Part shown: positions 39,999 through 47,690 of the stretch, one piece after another
Layout of the letters: every line of letters begins with the position of its first letter
Numbering within the stretch: the first letter of the stretch is position 1
Assembly: GCF_024970185.1 (NCBI RefSeq)
Contig: NZ_CP103965.1
Location: 1,732,001 to 1,796,000 of the forward strand
Source: Pseudomonas sp. N3-W
GTDB lineage: Bacteria > Pseudomonadota > Gammaproteobacteria > Pseudomonadales > Pseudomonadaceae
Reading direction: 5' to 3'
DNA: 64,000 nt
The notes under the pieces: model-generated
The model's input: the letters and a program-made list of their open reading frames with translations, nothing else
What the model was told of the DNA's origin: nothing
Database searches by the model: none
Position numbers and translations under genes: made by a program

Positions 39999-41138
39999 AT
40001 GGCTGAGAGCGAAAGCGGTCAAGACAAAACAGAAGACCCCACGGACAAAAAGAAAAAGGACGCCCGGGAGAAGGGCGAGGTTGCGCGCTCCAAGGAACTC
40101 AATACCCTGGCAATCATGCTGGTCGGTGCCAGTGCCTTGCTGATTTTTGGCGGCGCCCTGGCCCAGGACCTGATGGAGCTGATGCGCCTGAATTTCTCGC
40201 TGCCGCGAGAGGTGATTCTCGATCAGAAATACATGAGTACCTACCTGATGCATTCGGGGCAGGTCGCGTTGTGGGCGATTCAGCCGATCATGATCTCGTT
40301 GGTGCTGGCGGCGCTGATCGGCCCCATTTCACTGGGTGGCTGGCTGTTCTCCGCGGGCAGCATGGCGCCCAAGTTCAGCCGCATGAACCCGCTCAGCGGC
40401 CTTAAACGAATGTTCTCCAGCAAGGCGCTGGTCGAGCTGCTCAAGGCCCTGGCCAAATTCATCATCATTCTGTTCGTGGCGCTGGCGGTGTTGTCATCCG
40501 ACATCGACGACCTGCTGCGCATCGCCCACGAACCGCTGGACCGGGCCATCATCCACAGCCTGCAAGTGGTGGGCTGGAGTACCTTGTGGATGGCCTGCGG
40601 GCTGATCATCATCGCCGCCGTGGACGTGCCGGTGCAGCTGTGGGAAAGCCACAAGAAACTGCTGATGACCAAGCAGGAAATACGCGACGAACACAAAGAC
40701 CAGGAAGGCCGACCCGAGGTCAAACAGCGGATTCGCCAACTGCAGCGCGAAATGTCCCAGCGCCGCATGATGGCCGCGATCCCCGATGCCGACGTGGTCA
40801 TCACCAACCCGACCCACTACGCCGTTGCGCTCAAGTACGACCCGGAGAAGGGCGGGGCACCCATGCTCATCGCCAAGGGCAGTGACTTCCTGGCGTTGAA
40901 GATCCGTGAAATCGCCGTGGCCAACGAAGTATTGCTGCTTGAGTCCCCGGCGCTGGCGCGTTCGATCTATTACTCGACCGAACTGGATCAGGAAATTCCG
41001 GGTGGGCTCTATCTGGCCGTCGCCCAGGTCCTGGCCTACGTTTACCAGATCCGCCAGCACCGCGCCGGCAAGGGCAAACGCCCGGATCCGCTGAAAGGGG
41101 ATTTGCCGATCCCGCCGGATTTGAGGCGTGATTCCTGA
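39999..41138 (+). CDS. flhB: export switch protein FlhB
   Basis: A 379-residue protein with four membrane helices and a cytoplasmic autocleaving domain. The cleavage motif NPTH is at residues 270-273 (VVITNPTHYAVALKY). The charged N-terminus KTEDPTDKKKKDAREKGEV is typical. The last 88 bases of the gene up to the final serine codon are repeated at 42917-43004, after which foreign-looking DNA separates flhB from flhA. The C-terminus itself appears complete (RRDS stop). Confidence 0.96.
   Translation: MAESESGQDKTEDPTDKKKKDAREKGEVARSKELNTLAIMLVGASALLIFGGALAQDLMELMRLNFSLPREVILDQKYMSTYLMHSGQVALWAIQPIMISLVLAALIGPISLGGWLFSAGSMAPKFSRMNPLSGLKRMFSSKALVELLKALAKFIIILFVALAVLSSDIDDLLRIAHEPLDRAIIHSLQVVGWSTLWMACGLIIIAAVDVPVQLWESHKKLLMTKQEIRDEHKDQEGRPEVKQRIRQLQREMSQRRMMAAIPDADVVITNPTHYAVALKYDPEKGGAPMLIAKGSDFLALKIREIAVANEVLLLESPALARSIYYSTELDQEIPGGLYLAVAQVLAYVYQIRQHRAGKGKRPDPLKGDLPIPPDLRRDS
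41047..41134 (+). repeat. 88-bp direct repeat, copy 1: 3' end of flhB
   Basis: From AGATCCGCCAGCACC to CGTGATTC this stretch recurs at 42917-43004 with a single mismatch (GAAAGGGG versus GAAGGGGG). This copy is the functional flhB 3' end. The two copies bracket the first RHS gene and the transposase remnant. Confidence 0.92.
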
Positions 41139-41175
41139 TCTTTTTTATTGAGTTTGATGCTACGTCAATATGCGG

Positions 41176-42264
41176 CTAAAAAATGTCCTTTTGCACAAAG
41201 TATCTCGTTGCGAGCGCTCGACTCTGGAGTTCGCCTTCTGGTGATCTTATTTTGAGCATTTTATCTCTGTATTGATTGGCTATTTCTCTAAATAGAGGGT
41301 CGCGGGATTTATTTATTTCGCTCGGTAGCAACTGTAGATTGCTGGTGCTGAATATTATCTTTTCAGGGTGTCGACGGTCTCTTAGCAAGCCTAATACTTC
41401 TCTCAGTGTTTCTGCGTTATCAGGTAGTTGCAGGGAGGGAGGAAGTCTGTGTGTCGAAATTTTATTGTCGATTATATTCTGTATTGTCAGGTTTTTTAGA
41501 GAAGGGGGCGAGGTCTTATTGGAGAGGGGGAAGAGCTGGCGGTAGTCAGTTTCAAATATATCTTGTTGAAGAGTGATTGCTTTAGATTTTTGCTTGTCTG
41601 TTTGAAGTATACTTCTAAGGTTAATTGCTTTGTCGCGACTTATTCCTGTGTTTAATGTCAGGAATTGATTGGGTTTGATGCCCTGTATTGTTCGGCTTTC
41701 TATGTACCTCATAAGTGACGCCAGTATAGGGCTGTGTCCTGTGCTGTCGCTCCAGGTTATTGGGTCTCCAAAACAATACGCATAACTATTCAATCCACCC
41801 TGTTCAAACGGACTCAAACTATCCGGACTATTAAACCGCATCAATACCGGATTAAACGCCCGATACCCATTCCCCAATAAATAATGCCCGGTCACCGGGT
41901 CTCGCCGTTCGCCATTGAACCCCAGCAAGCTGGTCAACCCGCTTTCAGCAGGGCGATGGCCATAGGGCGAATAAGCAATAGGTTGTCGCTGTTGGCTGGC
42001 TTCAAGGGTCTGCAGCACCGAACGCTGCTGATCGGTGACCAGCAACGTGGTGTCAATCGCATCATCCTGACGCCGTAGTTGCGCCAGCAGCAGATCATCG
42101 TGCTGCACAATGGAATGCCCGGTCGTCCCCTGTATTTCGGTGGCCAACCGGCTTTTGCAGTAGAAACGCTGAAGCGTGGGTGTGTTCGGCTGAGCGTGGC
42201 CAGTCAGCCGGTCGAGGGGGTCGTAGCGATATTGGCAAAGTAGGGTTTCGCGTGGCGCTGGCAT
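41176..42264 (-). CDS. short RHS-core protein with unique tail 1
   Basis: A 362-residue minus-strand protein. Residues 1-177 are the end of an RHS core: QYRYDPLDRL, YSPYGHRP, LLGFNGERRDPVTGHYLLG and NPVLMRFNSPDSLSPF. The closing motif is DSTGH, where the usual form has DPxG. Residues 178-362 are a unique AT-rich tail, charged and helical-looking, that I cannot assign. There is no long YD-repeat cage, signal peptide or PAAR domain. GGAG lies nine bases before the ATG. The gene ends 37 bases from flhB, leaving no space for an immunity gene. It may be a polymorphic toxin or an RHS remnant. Confidence 0.8.
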   Translation of the reverse strand: MPAPRETLLCQYRYDPLDRLTGHAQPNTPTLQRFYCKSRLATEIQGTTGHSIVQHDDLLLAQLRRQDDAIDTTLLVTDQQRSVLQTLEASQQRQPIAYSPYGHRPAESGLTSLLGFNGERRDPVTGHYLLGNGYRAFNPVLMRFNSPDSLSPFEQGGLNSYAYCFGDPITWSDSTGHSPILASLMRYIESRTIQGIKPNQFLTLNTGISRDKAINLRSILQTDKQKSKAITLQQDIFETDYRQLFPLSNKTSPPSLKNLTIQNIIDNKISTHRLPPSLQLPDNAETLREVLGLLRDRRHPEKIIFSTSNLQLLPSEINKSRDPLFREIANQYRDKMLKIRSPEGELQSRALATRYFVQKDIF

Positions 42265-42280
42265 GAGTGGGTGCTCCGCA

Positions 42281-42522
42281 GGTCTGAAGTGCTGGCGTTC
42301 AGTATTGGCGCGATTGCAGCGGCTGGGTACTAGCAGAACTGTTAGGTTCGCTGTTGTCTGTTCCGCGCTCTATTGCGAGTAGCACCTGTGGCGAGGGAGC
42401 TTGCTCCCGTTCGGCTGCGCAGCAGTCGTTAACCCCCGTAAATGGAGTTTTGTCTGGCAGGCCGCGGTTGCGGGTTTGGGGCCGCTACGCGTCCCAGCGG
42501 GAGCAAGCTCCCTCGCCACAGT
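42281..42522. repeat. 266-bp-family repeat, isolated copy A, with REP pair
   Basis: Starting GGTCTGAAGTGCTGGCG and ending CTCGCCACAGTG, this is a near-identical copy of the unit that is tandemly repeated at 44135-45456. It contains facing REP arms GTGGCGAGGGAGCTTGCTCCC and GGGAGCAAGCTCCCTCGCCAC. It lies just upstream of the first RHS gene, as the tandem copies do for the second. Confidence 0.88.
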
Positions 42523-42541
42523 GTTCGTGGGCGGCACACCC

Positions 42542-42916
42542 AAAAGGGGACAGATTTATTTTGGACGGTCACGTTGGCTAGACTGAGCTTGTTTTGCTTC
42601 GCTAGCAAAAGATGGACATGGTTGGTCATCAAACAATAAGCCTAAACGTTTGCACCCAGAGCTTCTTTTTCAGCTCTCGCAGGTCTGAGAGGTGGTACTC
42701 AAAATCAGCAGGCCCAGCGAACAACTTACCGGTTGTGGCCTCGTTGAACGATGTGGCGGGAGTAGTTGGGCATTACAACTCGTCCTGTTCTGGGCATGTA
42801 TCGTTTTACGTCCATGTAGTGAAAGTGGATGCGTAGCGGGAACGAATGGCTTCGCTCTCGTTTTTTTGTAAATGAGCTTTTCTGTTTTTTAATTTAAATA
42901 AATCTGTCCCTTTTTT
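42542..42916 (-). mobile_element. remnant of REP-associated transposase element with inverted ends
   Basis: The ends are inverted repeats: AAAAGGGGACAGATTTATTT at 42542 and AAATAAATCTGTCCCTTTTT at 42896-42915. Near the left end the minus strand encodes MMTNHVHLLLA (around 42600-42632). This is the HUH catalytic region typical of Y1 REP-associated (IS200-like) transposases. The reading frame then breaks and the remaining ~270 bases show no protein, so only a fragment is left. Its right end touches the flhB duplication exactly, which suggests it took part in the rearrangement. Confidence 0.65.
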
Positions 42917-43004
42917 AGATCCGCCAGCACCGCGCCGGCAAGGGCAAACGCCCGGATCCGCTGAAGGGGGATTTGCCGATCCCGCCGGATTTGAGGCGTG
43001 ATTC
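42917..43004 (+). repeat. 88-bp direct repeat, copy 2: duplicated flhB 3' end
   Basis: A non-functional second copy of the last 29 codons of flhB, one mismatch from copy 1. It is followed by CGTAA instead of CCTGA, so both copies would encode the same final serine and a stop. The stop codons differ, which points to descent from two flhB alleles rather than a recent copy event. Confidence 0.92.
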
Positions 43005-43023
43005 GTAAAGGAATGTGAGAGGG

Positions 43024-44118
43024 TTAACTTTCAAAGTATTTGTATCGGATTCGTTGCGCCTCATTTCTAAGCTCAGCAACGTGTTGATCGGTGACTGATT
43101 TTAGCCGTGCCTTATACGAATCTACGAGTTTCTTATCGAAGGTGTTGAAAAAAGATGGAGTTGTGAGTTTTTCATAAATATTACGGGATCCTTGATTGTT
43201 TAAATTTTGTAATAGCGGTACGTAACTTGCCTGCTCAAATTTTACTGAGTTTTCTATTATCGACGAATGAGGTCGTTGGAATCTACTCGTTATGACTTCC
43301 GGGTTTTCAAATATATTGGAAAAGTCGGGGCGTAATTGTTCGTAAGCGAGTTGTTCAAGTTGCCCAGGGCTATTGGGGCGGGAGTTCTCGGCTGCAAGTG
43401 CAATGCGTTTGTCTTTTTCGAGTGTTGTTGCTTGTATGTGTTTTGTTCGGCCGGATATCGCTTTAAGTATGTTTACTATTTTTTTGTACTTGGCTTGCGC
43501 TTTTTCCGCTGTAATGCCTTTCTTTGACAATAATCCGTGACTAAATAAAAACTGCTTGTCTAGTGTGGTGAAGGTGGGTTTAAACATGTGTCCTGTTGGG
43601 TCTGTGAGATTGATGGGGTCTCCTGAGCAATACGCATAACTATTCAATCCGCCCTTCCCAAACGGACTCAAACTGTCCGGGCTATTAAATCGCATCAACA
43701 CCGGATTAAACGCCCGATACCCATTCCCCAACAAATAATGCCCGGTCACCGGGTCTCGCCGTTCGCCATTGAAGCCTAGCAAGCTGGTCAACCCGTTTTC
43801 ATCAGGGCGATGGCCATAGGGCGAATAAGCAATAGGTTGTCGCTGTTGGCTGGCTTCAAGGGTCTGCAGCACCGAACGCTGCTGATCGGTGGCCAGCAAC
43901 GTGGTGTTAATCGCATCATCCTGACGCCGTAGTTGCGCCAGCAGCAGATCATCGTGCTGCACAATGGAATGCCCGGTCGTCCCCTGTATTTCGGTGGCCA
44001 ACCGGCTTTTGCAATAGAAACGCTGAAGCGTGGGTGTGTTCGGCTGAGCGTGGTCAGTCAGCCGGTCGAGGGGGTCGTAGCGATATTGGCAAAGCAGGGT
44101 TTCGCGTGGGGCTGGCAT
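43024..44118 (-). CDS. short RHS-core protein with unique tail 2
   Basis: A 364-residue minus-strand protein. Residues 1-177 match the other RHS protein at all but about 12 positions, most of them after residue 150, and close with the canonical NLTDPTGH. Residues 178-364 form a different AT-rich tail, Lys/Glu-rich and probably helical, ending IRYKYFES. It has no resemblance I can see to tail 1 or to a known toxin family. GGAG lies eight bases before the ATG. The tail stops 19 bases from the duplicated flhB end, again without room for an immunity gene. Confidence 0.8.
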   Translation of the reverse strand: MPAPRETLLCQYRYDPLDRLTDHAQPNTPTLQRFYCKSRLATEIQGTTGHSIVQHDDLLLAQLRRQDDAINTTLLATDQQRSVLQTLEASQQRQPIAYSPYGHRPDENGLTSLLGFNGERRDPVTGHYLLGNGYRAFNPVLMRFNSPDSLSPFGKGGLNSYAYCSGDPINLTDPTGHMFKPTFTTLDKQFLFSHGLLSKKGITAEKAQAKYKKIVNILKAISGRTKHIQATTLEKDKRIALAAENSRPNSPGQLEQLAYEQLRPDFSNIFENPEVITSRFQRPHSSIIENSVKFEQASYVPLLQNLNNQGSRNIYEKLTTPSFFNTFDKKLVDSYKARLKSVTDQHVAELRNEAQRIRYKYFES

Positions 44119-44134: not shown

Positions 44135-45456
44135 ATTGAAAGTGCTGGCGTTCAGTATTGGCGCGATTGCAGCGGCTGGGTACTAGCAGAACTGTCAGGT
44201 TCGCTGTTTGTCTGTTCCGCGCTCTATTGCGAGTAGCACCTGTGGCGAGGGAGCTTGCTCCCGTTCGGCTGCGCAGCAGTCGTTAACCTCCGTAAATGGA
44301 GTTTTGTCTGGCAGGCCGCGGTTGCGGGTTTGGGGCCGCTGCGCGTCCCAGCGGGAGCAAGCTCCCTCGCCACAGTGCAGATCGCTTGCAGCTTGCGCAG
44401 GTCTGAAGTGCTGGCGTTCAGTATTGGCGCGATTGCAGCGGCTGGGGACTAGCAGAACTGTCAGGTTCGCTGTTGTCTGTTCCGCGCTCTATTGCGAGTA
44501 GCACCTGTGGCGAGGGAGCTTGCTCCCGTTCGGCTGCGCAGCAGTCGTTAACCCCCGTAAATGGAGTTTTGTCTGGCAGGCCGCGGTTGCGGGTTTAGGG
44601 CCGCTGCGCGTCCCAGCGGGAGCAAGCTCCCTCGCCACAGTGCAGATCGCTTGCAGCTTGCGCAGGTCTGAAGTGCTGGCGTTCAGTATTGGCGCGATTG
44701 CAGCGGCTGGGTACTAGCAGAACTGTCAGGTTCGCTGTTTGTCTGTTCCGCGCTCTATTGCGAGTAGCACCTGTGGCGAGGGCGCTTGCTCCCGTTCGGC
44801 TGCGCAGCAGTCGTTAACCTCCGTAAATGGAGTTTTGTCTGGCAGGCCGCGGTTGCGGGTTTGGGGCCGCTACGCGTCCCAGCGGGAGCAAGCTCCCTCG
44901 CCACAGTGCAGATCGCTTGCAGCTTGCGCAGGTCTGAAGTGCTGGCGTTCAGTATTGGCGCGATTGCAGCGGCTGGGTACTAGCAGAACTGTCAGGTTCG
45001 CTGTTTGTCTGTTCCGCGCTCTATTGCGAGTAGCACCTATGGCGAGGGAGCTTGCTCCCGTTCGGCTGCGCAGCAGTCGTTAACCTCCGTAAATGGAGTT
45101 TTGTCTGGCAGGCCGCGGTTGCGGGTTTGGGGCCGCTGCGCGTCCCAGCGGGAGCAAGCTCCCTCGCCACAGTGCAGATCGCTTGCAGCTTGCGCAGGTC
45201 TGAAGTGCTGGCGTTCAGTATTGGCGCGATTGCAGCGGCTGGGGACTAGCAGAACTGTCAGGTTCGCTGTTTGTCTGTTCCGCGCTCTATTGCGAGTAGC
45301 ACCTGTGGCGAGGGAGCTTGCTCCCGTTCGGCTGCGCAGCAGTCGTTAACCCCCGTAAATGAAATTTTGTCTGGCAGGCCGCGGTTGCGGGTTTGGGGCC
45401 GCTGCGCGTCCCAGCGGGAGCAAGCTCCCTCGCCACAGTGCAGATCGCTTGCAGCT
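44135..45456. repeat. five tandem copies of a ~266-bp REP-containing repeat
   Basis: Unit boundaries at GGTCTGAAGTGCTGG fall at 44400, 44665, 44931 and 45197, giving periods of 265, 266 and 266. A first copy begins near 44135 with a diverged edge, and the last ends at 45456. Copies differ by only a few bases (for example CCTCCG/CCCCCG and CGCTGCGCG/CGCTACGCG). Each carries facing REP arms GAGGGAGCTTGCTCCCG and CGGGAGCAAGCTCCCTC, a different REP class from the operon-end pairs. No gene is credible here; the small open frames simply repeat with the unit. Confidence 0.93.
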
Positions 45457-45484: not shown

Positions 45485-45500
45485 TGGAAGGCTTCTTGCA
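45485..45500 (+). promoter_or_regulatory. sigma-54 promoter of flhA
   Basis: TTGGAAGGCTTCTTGCA has GG-N10-GC and TTGCA at -12, with GGAAG in place of GGCAC. It lies only 29 bases after the last tandem repeat and 61 bases before the flhA start. This keeps flhA under FleQ/RpoN control despite the insertion. Confidence 0.7.
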
Positions 45501-45560: not shown

Positions 45561-47690
45561 GTGGATCGCTCTCAGTTACTCAACAGTGCCCGCACAAACC
45601 TGAATGACCTCTCGCGAGGCAATCTGGGCGTGCCGTTGTTGCTGCTGGTCATGCTGGCAATGATGATGTTGCCCATCCCGCCGTTCCTGCTGGACGTGTT
45701 TTTCACGTTCAACATTGCCTTGTCCATCGTTGTGTTGCTGGTCTGCGTCTACGCCTTGCGGCCGCTGGATTTCGCGGTGTTCCCGACCATATTGCTGGTG
45801 GCGACGTTGATGCGCCTGGCGCTGAACGTGGCCTCCACGCGGGTGGTGATGCTCCACGGGCAGGACGGCCATGCCGCTGCCGGTAAGGTGATTCAGGCCT
45901 TCGGTGAGGTGGTGATCGGCGGCAACTACGTGGTCGGTATCGTGGTGTTCGCGATCTTGATGATCATCAACTTCGTCGTGGTGACCAAGGGCGCCGGGCG
46001 GATTTCCGAGGTGAGCGCACGTTTTACCCTCGATGCGATGCCCGGCAAGCAGATGGCCATCGACGCCGACCTCAACGCCGGCCTGATCGACCAGAACCAG
46101 GCCAAGCTGCGCCGGATGGAAGTGGCCCAGGAGGCCGAGTTCTACGGTTCCATGGACGGTGCCAGCAAGTTCGTCCGGGGTGACGCCATCGCCGGCCTGC
46201 TGATTCTGTTCATCAACCTTATTGGCGGCATGGCGGTCGGCATCTTCCAGCACGGCATGAGCTTCGGCGATGCTGGCAAGGTTTACGCGCTGTTGACCAT
46301 CGGTGACGGTTTGGTGGCGCAATTGCCATCACTGCTGCTGTCCACCGCTGCCGCGATCATGGTGACCCGTGCTTCCGGTTCCGAAGACATGGGCAAGCAG
46401 ATCGGCCGCCAGATGTTCGCCTCGCCCAAGGCGCTGGCCGTCGCGGCCGGGCTGATGGCGGTGATGGGCATCGTGCCCGGCATGCCGCACTTCTCCTTCC
46501 TCAGCATGGCGGCCCTGGCGGCTGGCGGTGCTTACCTGTTCTGGAAGAAGCAGAACGTGGTCAAGGTTCAGGCCTTGCAAGAGGTCAAGCGTCAGCAGGA
46601 GCTGCTGCCTTCCCCGGCCCGCGCTCAGGAAACCAAGGAACTTGGCTGGGATGACGTGACCCCGATCGACATGATCGGCCTGGAAGTGGGCTATCGCCTG
46701 ATTCCGCTGGTGGACCGCAATCAGGGTGGCCAGTTGCTGGCGCGGATCAAGGGCGTGCGCAAGAAGCTGTCCCAGGACCTGGGCTTCCTGATGCCGACGG
46801 TGCATATACGTGACAACCTCGACCTGGCGCCCAGTGCCTATCGCCTCACCCTGATGGGTGTGATCCTTGCCGAAGCGGAGATTTACCCGGACCGCGAGCT
46901 GGCGATCAACCCCGGACAGGTCTACGGCACGCTCAATGGCATTACCGCCAAAGATCCGGCTTTTGGCCTGGAGGCCGTCTGGATCGAAATCAGCCAGCGC
47001 GCCCAGGCTCAGTCCCTCGGTTACACCGTGGTCGATGCCAGTACGGTAGTGGCAACCCACTTGAACCAGATTCTGTACAAGCACTCCAGCGAGCTGATTG
47101 GCCACGAAGAAGTCCAGCAACTCATGCAATTGCTGGCCAAAAGCTCGCCAAAACTGGCGGAGGAGCTGGTGCCGGGCGTGGTGTCGCTGTCGCAATTGCT
47201 CAAGGTCTTGCAGGCGCTGTTGGCCGAACAGGTGCCGGTACGGGACATTCGCAGCATTGCCGAGGCCATCGCCAACAATGCCGCCAAGAGTCAAGATACT
47301 GCCGCTTTGGTGGCCGCGGTGCGCGTCGGCGTATCGCGCGCAATCGTCCAAAGCATTGTAGGGACTGAGTCCGAGCTACCAGTTATCACTCTGGAGCCAA
47401 GGTTGGAACAGATATTGCTCAATAGTCTGCAGAAGGCAGGACAAGGCTCGGAAGAGGGCGTTCTGCTGGAGCCAAGCATGGCAGAGAAGCTGCAGCGTTC
47501 ATTGATCGATGCCGCGCAGCGTCAAGAGATGCAAGGTCAACCGGTGATTCTGCTGGTGGCCGGTCCGGTTCGCGCGATGCTCTCGCGGTTCGGTCGGCTG
47601 GCAGTCCCGGGTTTGCATGTGTTGGCTTATCAGGAAATCCCTGACAACAAGCAAGTGACCATCGTTGCGACAGTAGGGCCCAACGGCTGA
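45561..47690 (+). CDS. flhA: flagellar export gate protein FlhA
   Basis: A 709-residue export gate protein. About eight membrane helices lie in residues 20-330, beginning LGVPLLLLVMLAMMMLPIPP. The FHIPEP loop has GAGRISEVSARFTLDAMPGK. The cytoplasmic domain (LGWDDVTPIDMIGLEVGYRL, EAVWIEISQRAQAQSLGYTV) forms the nonameric substrate ring. The start is GTG 45561 behind AAGGAACGGGGAAAA. The frame is open further upstream, but only into the REP array. Confidence 0.95.
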   Translation: MDRSQLLNSARTNLNDLSRGNLGVPLLLLVMLAMMMLPIPPFLLDVFFTFNIALSIVVLLVCVYALRPLDFAVFPTILLVATLMRLALNVASTRVVMLHGQDGHAAAGKVIQAFGEVVIGGNYVVGIVVFAILMIINFVVVTKGAGRISEVSARFTLDAMPGKQMAIDADLNAGLIDQNQAKLRRMEVAQEAEFYGSMDGASKFVRGDAIAGLLILFINLIGGMAVGIFQHGMSFGDAGKVYALLTIGDGLVAQLPSLLLSTAAAIMVTRASGSEDMGKQIGRQMFASPKALAVAAGLMAVMGIVPGMPHFSFLSMAALAAGGAYLFWKKQNVVKVQALQEVKRQQELLPSPARAQETKELGWDDVTPIDMIGLEVGYRLIPLVDRNQGGQLLARIKGVRKKLSQDLGFLMPTVHIRDNLDLAPSAYRLTLMGVILAEAEIYPDRELAINPGQVYGTLNGITAKDPAFGLEAVWIEISQRAQAQSLGYTVVDASTVVATHLNQILYKHSSELIGHEEVQQLMQLLAKSSPKLAEELVPGVVSLSQLLKVLQALLAEQVPVRDIRSIAEAIANNAAKSQDTAALVAAVRVGVSRAIVQSIVGTESELPVITLEPRLEQILLNSLQKAGQGSEEGVLLEPSMAEKLQRSLIDAAQRQEMQGQPVILLVAGPVRAMLSRFGRLAVPGLHVLAYQEIPDNKQVTIVATVGPNG

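What the first reader, a model, noticed from the sequence alone, without database searches (positions are those of the whole stretch)
41047..43004. RHS gene cassette inserted between flhB and flhA, bracketed by an 88-bp duplication of the flhB 3' end
The flhB end (41047-41134) reappears at 42917-43004 with one mismatch and a different stop codon (TGA versus TAA) after the same serine. Between the copies lie a minus-strand RHS-core gene, one 266-bp REP repeat and a transposase remnant. A second RHS gene follows copy 2. This looks like two alleles of a flhB-RHS-flhA locus joined in tandem. That would make the flhB 3' end a landing or exchange point for RHS cassettes inside an otherwise fixed flagellar operon.
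Basis: partly seen in the sequence, partly recalled or inferred. Interest (0 to 1): 0.82.

Follow-up and report, generated by a model that had tools for sequence, protein, structure and literature searches.

The report
Toxin-like genes stacked beside flhB
In this Pseudomonas two variants of a toxin-like (RHS) gene sit one behind the other between two flagellar genes, with a leftover piece of the flagellar gene flhB between them; related species show that this spot repeatedly collects such genes and that an incoming copy can replace the end of flhB without breaking it.

Summary
In detail: flhB's last 88 bp recur 1,870 bp downstream with one mismatch and TAA instead of TGA, and each copy adjoins a minus-strand RHS-core gene (362 and 364 aa) with a different C-terminal tip. 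Comparison with 116 congeneric flhB loci supports 'two alleles in tandem'. The flhB-flhA interval is 161-7,261 bp in the 91 measured, and holds 0-3 short RHS genes. flhB 3'-end copies of differing length separate RHS genes in four other named genomes, and one more has an flhA 5' copy instead. Best case: P. putida ASAD and P. serbica IT-P366, 99.1% identical over 4,977 bp. ASAD's flhB matches for 980 bp, then has a foreign 160-bp end and an extra RHS gene; the resident flhB tail and allele follow. This fits homologous recombination on the flhB side and an illegitimate junction on the other, in some cases at a Y1-element end (4 of 10 junctions). Corrections: the site is an operon boundary (sigma54-like motif before flhA in 105 of 105 intervals), and most cassettes lack an flhB copy. 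Tip function unknown. New variant of a known kind.

The parts
39999..41138 (+). flhB, intact, stop TGA
   Evidence: ORF 379 aa; matched at 64-93% identity in 117 of 118 same-genus relatives at E<=1e-150
41047..41134 (+). flhB 3' end, copy 1; by analogy with P. putida ASAD the end brought in with RHS A (inferred)
41176..42264 (-). short RHS gene A, 362 aa: core 41731-42264, variable tip A 41176-41730
   Evidence: TIGR03696 1.3e-21; start position shared with the family; tip relative in L156 at the same site
42277..42523 (.). 247 bp of the 266-bp REP-containing repeat unit, single copy
   Evidence: 97.6-98.4% to four array copies; inverted repeats
42546..42916 (-). remnant of a Y1 (IS200-like) transposase element with inverted ends GGGGACAGATTTATTT / AAATAAATCTGTCCCT; its right end lies 5 nt from flhB copy 2
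   Evidence: ends; 73.8% to bases 564-885 of the 885-bp element; family PF01797 shown on a related ORF of L020
42917..43008 (+). flhB 3' end, copy 2, stop TAA at 43006-43008; fossil of the second allele
   Evidence: 88 bp at 98.9%
43024..44118 (-). short RHS gene B, 364 aa: core about 43588-44118, tip B about 43024-43587
   Evidence: TIGR03696 1.1e-22; tip cluster of 7 proteins, all at this site, in six genomes
44140..45456 (.). about five tandem copies of the 266-bp REP-containing unit, 98-99% identical
45485..45500 (+). sigma54-like promoter motif TGGAAGGCTTCTTGCA in front of flhA
   Evidence: motif in 91 of 91 intervals, 105 of 105 with a slightly different pattern; function inferred from the consensus (recalled)
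45561..47690 (+). flhA (start codon inferred)
   Evidence: ORF; start inferred from the conserved GTGGATCGCTC context

Best explanation
The flhB-flhA boundary of this Pseudomonas group is an insertion-tolerant site where short RHS genes (a constant ~177-aa RHS core followed by a variable ~180-aa tip) and other cargo are exchanged as alleles of flhB-tip-core. The window holds two such alleles in tandem. An incoming allele (flhB 3' end with TGA, RHS A, REP unit, Y1-element remnant) was joined by homologous recombination within flhB on one side, and by an illegitimate junction at the Y1-element end on the other. The resident allele (last 92 bp of flhB with TAA, RHS B, REP array) was pushed downstream. 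flhB stays intact because the incoming DNA brings its own flhB 3' end, and flhA is unaffected because its own promoter lies beyond the insert. SHOWN in a relative: the foreign flhB end, the displaced resident tail and the retained resident allele. INFERRED for the window: which copy is incoming, the one-sided homology mechanism, the source of the DNA (transformation or other transfer), and that the tips are effector or toxin domains.
For: P. putida ASAD (L120) vs P. serbica IT-P366 (L136): 99.1% over 4,977 bp; flhB differs at 2 of the first 980 positions and 35 of the last 160. ASAD's displaced flhB piece is 98.7% to L136 but 83% to its own flhB (own rank 101 of 120) and is followed by the L136 allele (381 bp at 99.2% including the flhB piece, then, after a second insertion, 971 bp at 99.9% to the end of the stretch). 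flhB 3'-end copies of 78-421 bp separate RHS genes in L113, L120, L137 and L139, and L050 repeats RHS core + flhA promoter motif + flhA 5' end. In the window the flhB end (98%) and the core (72% in the block at the tip border, then 90-98%) are shared while tips are 30-43% per 60-bp block. Y1-element right ends lie within 30 nt of 4 of 10 flhB-copy junctions, binomial P 1.5e-7 (4 of 11 with L132 added, 2.4e-7). RHS genes are opposite to flhB in 40 of 42 cases. flhA-flhF gap 10-12 bp in 101 of 101, flhB-flhA interval 161-7,261 bp in 91. Core dN/dS 0.11-0.24 in 13 of 14 hand-picked pairs.
Against: No strain of the window's own species lacking the insert was available, so donor and resident cannot be told apart here. 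L137 is a plain tandem duplication with an identical tip (1,627 bp at 98.5%), and the window could be such a duplication with a later tip swap. In the window, L113, L137, L097 and L066 the copy is closest to its own flhB; in L139, L072, L116 and L111 other genomes match somewhat better, but only in L120 is there a near-identical match elsewhere, so import of a foreign end is shown once. No ATTCGTAA-ending flhB among 117. HFIR's usual ~1-kb recipient deletion is only 82 bp in ASAD, and microhomology could not be tested. 23 of the 28 RHS-bearing loci show no flhB 3'-end copy between RHS genes (three of these, L111, L116 and L132, hold short or degraded flhB fragments). The Y1-end association was noticed before it was tested.
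Confidence: 0.7

Rival explanations
1. Tandem duplication inside one lineage (flhB 3' end + RHS + REP) followed by replacement of one tip by recombination between flhB and the RHS core.
For: L137 is such a duplication with an identical tip (1,627 bp, 98.5%); in the window flhB end, most of the core and the REP unit are 90-99% alike.
Against: Cannot explain ASAD, where the intact flhB end is foreign and the displaced end is the resident one.
Confidence: 0.3
2. A Y1 element first landed in flhB; the broken gene was then rescued by ordinary two-sided homologous recombination with a donor allele of the form flhB-RHS-Y1, using flhB on one side and the Y1 copy on the other. No illegitimate step is needed, and restored motility would select the product.
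For: Y1 right ends 5, 7, 14 and 14 nt from 4 of 10 junctions; Y1-type ORFs lie between RHS genes in L020, L023 and L050 (Pfam run on the L020 one only).
Against: 6 of 10 junctions have no such end, nor has L132; no flhB carrying a Y1 insertion was seen, although I did not search for one specifically.
Confidence: 0.25
3. Site-specific integration of an element using the flhB 3' end as attachment site, the 88 bp being the att repeat.
For: Most copies end at the flhB stop, as with elements that use gene 3' ends.
Against: The left boundary differs in every locus (copies of 43 to 421 bp), and the window interval has no ORF longer than 114 aa besides the RHS genes. Integrase genes were not searched for systematically in the relatives.
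Confidence: 0.04
4. Assembly error.
For: Repeats flank the segment.
Against: Single-contig genome; copies differ in stop codon and neighbouring tips; the same architecture recurs in other assemblies.
Confidence: 0.02

Closest known systems
Rhs C-terminal displacement (Jackson et al. 2009, PMC2935791; passages from abstract, results and discussion seen)
   Same: Constant core, variable tips, new tips added while old ones stay downstream as fragments.
   Different: They propose a circular intermediate and single crossover in the core, with attached and displaced cores always identical within a locus. Here the anchor can be a neighbouring flagellar gene, the cores differ, and the ASAD geometry (displaced flhB starts beyond the crossover point) does not fit a simple circle. 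Both copies here are complete short genes.
Sequential displacement of T6SS effectors in V. cholerae (Kirchberger et al. 2017, PMC5361080; passages seen)
   Same: Effector modules added stepwise, older parts retained; homology-facilitated illegitimate recombination discussed.
   Different: Immunity genes are retained within T6SS clusters there; here whole RHS genes plus a fossil of a flagellar gene are retained at a locus unrelated to secretion of effectors, and no immunity gene was recognised.
Homology-facilitated illegitimate recombination (PMC3240628; abstract, outline and introduction read)
   Same: Homologous crossover at one end, illegitimate at the other, linked deletion in the recipient.
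   Different: Known from transformation and conjugation assays; here it would act repeatedly at one locus, and element ends are over-represented at the illegitimate side.
IS200-like Y1 transposases
   Same: PF01797 in a related intact ORF; terminal inverted motif.
   Different: In the window only a remnant remains.

Membership tests
Rhs/YD polymorphic effector | RHS-associated core domain at the core-tip border | tested here: met
   TIGR03696 in both
Rhs/YD polymorphic effector | Long repeat shell and N-terminal delivery domain (PAAR, VgrG or similar) | tested here: not met
   362/364 aa, start about 177 aa before the core end as in the family; no delivery domain in Pfam
Rhs/YD polymorphic effector | Variable C-terminal toxin domain | tested here: inconclusive
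   Variable: 71 tip clusters among 131 genes. Toxin: of 70 representatives only three weak single Pfam matches, one each to F-box, Sld5 and TEN_YD-shell, E 0.003-0.009; another tip cluster weakly resembles ADP-ribosyltransferases, best E 0.011; no fold match for RHS B
Rhs/YD polymorphic effector | Immunity gene directly downstream of the tip | tested here: not met
   Only 37 bp (RHS A) and 15 bp (RHS B) separate the RHS stop from the flhB end; short frames elsewhere in the interval were not tested as immunity genes
Homology-facilitated illegitimate recombination | Homologous crossover at one end | tested here: met
   ASAD flhB breakpoint near position 980; not testable in the window
Homology-facilitated illegitimate recombination | Illegitimate junction at the other end with recipient deletion | tested here: met
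   ASAD: junction at flhB position 1063, resident 981-1062 lost; not testable in the window
Homology-facilitated illegitimate recombination | 3-10 bp microhomology at the illegitimate junction | tested here: inconclusive
   Donor sequence beyond the junction unknown
Homology-facilitated illegitimate recombination | RecA dependence | not testable with these tools
   needs an assay
Rhs tip displacement by circular intermediate | Identical cores in attached and displaced copies | tested here: not met
   Window cores plus upstream and REP unit 94.7% over 793 bp
Site-specific integrative element at a gene 3' end | Constant att repeat | tested here: not met
   Repeat length 43-421 bp among ten loci
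Site-specific integrative element at a gene 3' end | Integrase gene in the element | tested here: inconclusive
   No ORF above 114 aa besides RHS in the window interval; relatives not screened for integrases

The most novel reading that the evidence does not exclude
flhB is a self-healing docking site: polymorphic effector alleles travel with a replacement flhB 3' end as homology arm, and a Y1-type element end supplies the second end of the junction (homology-anchored, one-ended insertion). Whole effector alleles can thus be stacked beside an important motility gene without ever breaking it.
Probability: 0.3. Interest if true: 0.78.

Novelty: new variant of a known kind. Interest (0 to 1): 0.62.

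Why it matters
How bacteria gain new polymorphic effector variants while keeping old ones is usually inferred from static arrays. Here the flanking flhB tail works as a tag: it records an addition, its direction and sometimes its foreign origin, and one pair of genomes nearly identical around the site gives before and after states. The site also suggests why insertion is tolerated (an operon boundary in front of a promoter), so it gives a testable, selectable system (motility) for homology-anchored gene capture, and a large family of short RHS genes without delivery domain or recognised immunity gene that needs a function.

Tried and rejected
Attachment-site model: rejected because copy lengths and left ends differ in every locus. 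Assembly artefact: rejected because of recurrence in other assemblies. Simple circle (Campbell) integration for ASAD: rejected because the displaced flhB starts at 1063, beyond the ~980 crossover. Foreign-tail test across close pairs: not decisive, since flhB tails are less alike than bodies even in a pair without inserts (L036/L044, 0.960 vs 0.869). Tip function: Pfam on 70 cluster representatives gave three weak single matches; fold search of the RHS B model gave E 0.13 at best, the core part of that model being poor (pLDDT under 50). Tip protein searches returned only the query or one or two near copies, but relatives at about 50% overall identity exist, so that search is too insensitive to call the tips unique. 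Plasmid and phage collections hold distant RHS relatives: 57 of 59 plasmid records and 8 of 8 phage records under 60% identity. Within-species strains: no collection that I could search holds them.

Sampling caveats: of the 100 unnamed stretches, 86 are from the 88 congeners with FlhB E<=1e-214 among 398 genomes (G329 and G391 were not fetched) and 14 were taken because RHS genes were seen in the genome (G372, G106 and the last twelve). Ten had no flhA within the stretch and were dropped from the interval counts. The 76 named loci (best 80 of 324 relatives) were selected for RHS, so RHS counts are not prevalences; 19 of the 76 lie at flhB/flhA. Three loci (L020, L037, L038) were dropped as duplicates of named ones before the counts. 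Interval lengths run to about 30 bp inside flhA. The ten flhB-copy loci were chosen from BLAST matches; weaker matches were left out, among them L132 (87 bp, 77%, a degraded flhB end), L028 (38 bp) and a second one in L072 (67 bp). Of the 131 RHS genes two (L010, L172) are the ends of long RHS frames.
Full report
OBSERVATION. The 88-bp repeat is real: 41047-41134 and 42917-43004, one mismatch, spacing 1,870 bp. The intact flhB ends TCC TGA and the copy TCG TAA. Each copy is followed by a minus-strand gene whose stop lies close to the flhB end (37 bp and 15 bp) and which carries the RHS-associated core (TIGR03696). Aligning the two units in 60-bp blocks shows flhB ends 98% alike, tips 30-43%, and the core 72% in the block at the tip border and 90-98% beyond it; over most of the core, upstream region and REP unit together the match is 94.7% across 793 bp. 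So constant parts (flhB end, core) bracket a variable part (tip), as expected for two alleles. The interval between RHS A and copy 2 holds most of one 266-bp REP-containing unit and a Y1-element remnant with its terminal motifs, whose right end lies 5 nt from the flhB copy.

SETTING. A sigma54-like motif (TGGAAGGCTTCTTGCA or close variants; consensus recalled) lies upstream of flhA in all 91 intervals examined, at nearly the same distance in 90 of them (L110 is the exception), and in 105 of 105 when named loci are added. In the window it is about 60 bp before the inferred start, and the inserted genes lie between the flhB stop and this motif. The next gap in the cluster, flhA-flhF, is 10-12 bp in 101 of 101 loci, whereas flhB-flhA ranges from 161 to 7,261 bp, above 400 bp in 60 of 91. 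The site therefore looks like a boundary between two transcription units. Ten of 100 fetched stretches lacked flhA and were not counted; in one of those genomes flhB and flhA are about 30 kb apart.

GENUS-WIDE PICTURE. Short RHS genes occur at this boundary 0, 1, 2 or 3 times (80, 15, 7, 3 of 105 intervals with flhA, window included; partly RHS-selected sample), and 40 of 42 are opposite to flhB. 49 of 60 intervals above 400 bp have no RHS core. Of their ORFs I scanned six with Pfam: besides the Y1 transposase, a DUF6124 protein, a peptidase M60-like protein and a PAAR/pyocin-S protein were recognised, two had no match. flhB pieces recur inside the inserts of nine relatives examined in detail: L113, L120, L137, L139 (between RHS genes), L066, L072, L097 (no short RHS gene) and two short remnants, L111 and L116 (the latter internal to flhB). 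L132 has a degraded tenth (87 bp at 77%). L050 is the mirror case: RHS core, promoter motif and the start of flhA are repeated (1,141 bp at 95%). Copy length differs in every locus, which argues against a fixed attachment site.

BEFORE AND AFTER. P. putida ASAD (L120) and P. serbica IT-P366 (L136) are 99.1% identical over 4,977 bp ending with flhB. Within flhB they differ at 2 of 980 positions, then at 35 of 160. ASAD then has an RHS gene, a degenerate Y1-element end, and 78 bp that match the end of L136's flhB at 98.7% but its own at 83% (own rank 101 of 120). These are followed by the L136 downstream DNA (381 bp at 99.2% counted from the flhB piece), a second insertion of about 4.3 kb bracketed by two 885-bp Y1 elements, and L136's RHS allele as far as the stretch reaches (971 bp at 99.9%). 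The plain reading: an incoming fragment carrying a foreign flhB end and an RHS gene recombined by homology inside flhB, joined illegitimately to resident flhB 78 bp before its end, removed 82 bp in between, and left the resident allele in place. The donor is not in the sample; the foreign tail's best matches are 89-90%. This matches the definition of homology-facilitated illegitimate recombination in PMC3240628 (introduction read), except that the deletion is small and microhomology is untestable. By analogy the window's intact flhB end came with RHS A, and copy 2 is the fossil of the RHS B allele. This direction is inferred. In the other loci the copy is either closest to its own flhB (five, window included) or somewhat closer to others but without a near-identical match (four), so they do not add proof of import.

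Y1-ELEMENT ENDS. Four of the 10 flhB-copy junctions lie within 30 nt of a Y1-element right end; 0.52% of positions in 84 inserts do (binomial P 1.5e-7; 2.4e-7 for 4 of 11 with L132). Positions are not fully independent, and the motif was noticed in these junctions before it was tested. Element ends may therefore supply breaks or homology on the second side. An alternative is that a Y1 insertion in flhB was later repaired by a donor allele through homology at flhB and at the element.

THE RHS GENES. 131 distinct genes (38 at this site, 93 elsewhere; two of them, L010 and L172, are ends of long RHS frames), 130 of them 320-399 aa as started here, share a start about 177 aa before the end of the core; 87 of 131 have GGAG within 20 nt upstream. 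They fall into 71 tip clusters. Four clusters hold both flhB-site and other-site genes; tip B's cluster (7 proteins, six genomes) is confined to the flhB site, as is tip A's pair with L156. In 14 hand-picked pairs dN/dS of the core is 0.11-0.24 in 13 (0.51 in the near-identical L137 pair, few changes); for tips it is 0.11-0.88 in the nine same-cluster pairs where it could be computed. The proteins are therefore under constraint. The own genome has further copies at 0.24, 2.70 and 6.10 Mb. In the window genes no delivery domain was found and no immunity gene was recognised. Tips: three weak single Pfam matches in 70 representatives; one other tip cluster weakly resembles ADP-ribosyltransferases (E 0.011); tip B is predicted mainly helical without a fold match. 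That they are effectors is an inference from the RHS architecture.

KNOWN OR NEW. Tip displacement in rhs loci (PMC2935791, passages) and stepwise displacement of T6SS effectors, with homology-facilitated illegitimate recombination discussed (PMC5361080, passages), are known. No paper describing short RHS genes or tandem alleles at flhB-flhA appeared in the listings, which cover open-licence full texts only; I judged them by the listings and did not read those papers, apart from the passages of PMC5361080. Verdict: a new variant of a known kind, with unusually direct evidence in one relative.

Noticed in passing
window 44140-45456: Tandem array of about five 266-bp REP-containing units, 98-99% identical, directly in front of the flhA promoter motif; a sixth, slightly shortened copy lies behind RHS A.
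   Followed up: partly
L120 7272-8156 and 10662-11542 (flhB-forward orientation): Two direct copies of an 885-bp Y1 element bracket a second RHS-containing insertion of about 4.3 kb, like a composite unit.
   Followed up: partly
G306:C11:981753-1012143: About 30 kb separate flhB from flhA in this congener; only about the first 8 kb were fetched.
   Followed up: no
L187 (G000:C1:6090000-6109999) and L189 (G000:C1:238000-252000): Further short RHS genes of the same genome sit singly or in tandem between other chromosomal genes, far from the genome's long RHS frames at 3.70-3.72 Mb.
   Followed up: partly
L085 2306-3778 (flhB-forward orientation): A PAAR plus S-type pyocin domain protein and a small following ORF occupy the flhB-flhA boundary of another species.
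   Followed up: no
L066 2602-3696 (flhB-forward orientation): Peptidase M60-like protein next to an flhB duplicate of 341 bp without any short RHS gene.
   Followed up: no
L097 1086-2088 and 5363-6363: 1,010-bp direct duplication (91%) starting in flhB and covering DUF6124-type ORFs, so the stacking is not limited to RHS genes.
   Followed up: partly
L111 (UBA8181): flhB appears as two separate matches, possibly a frameshift or a metagenome assembly error.
   Followed up: no
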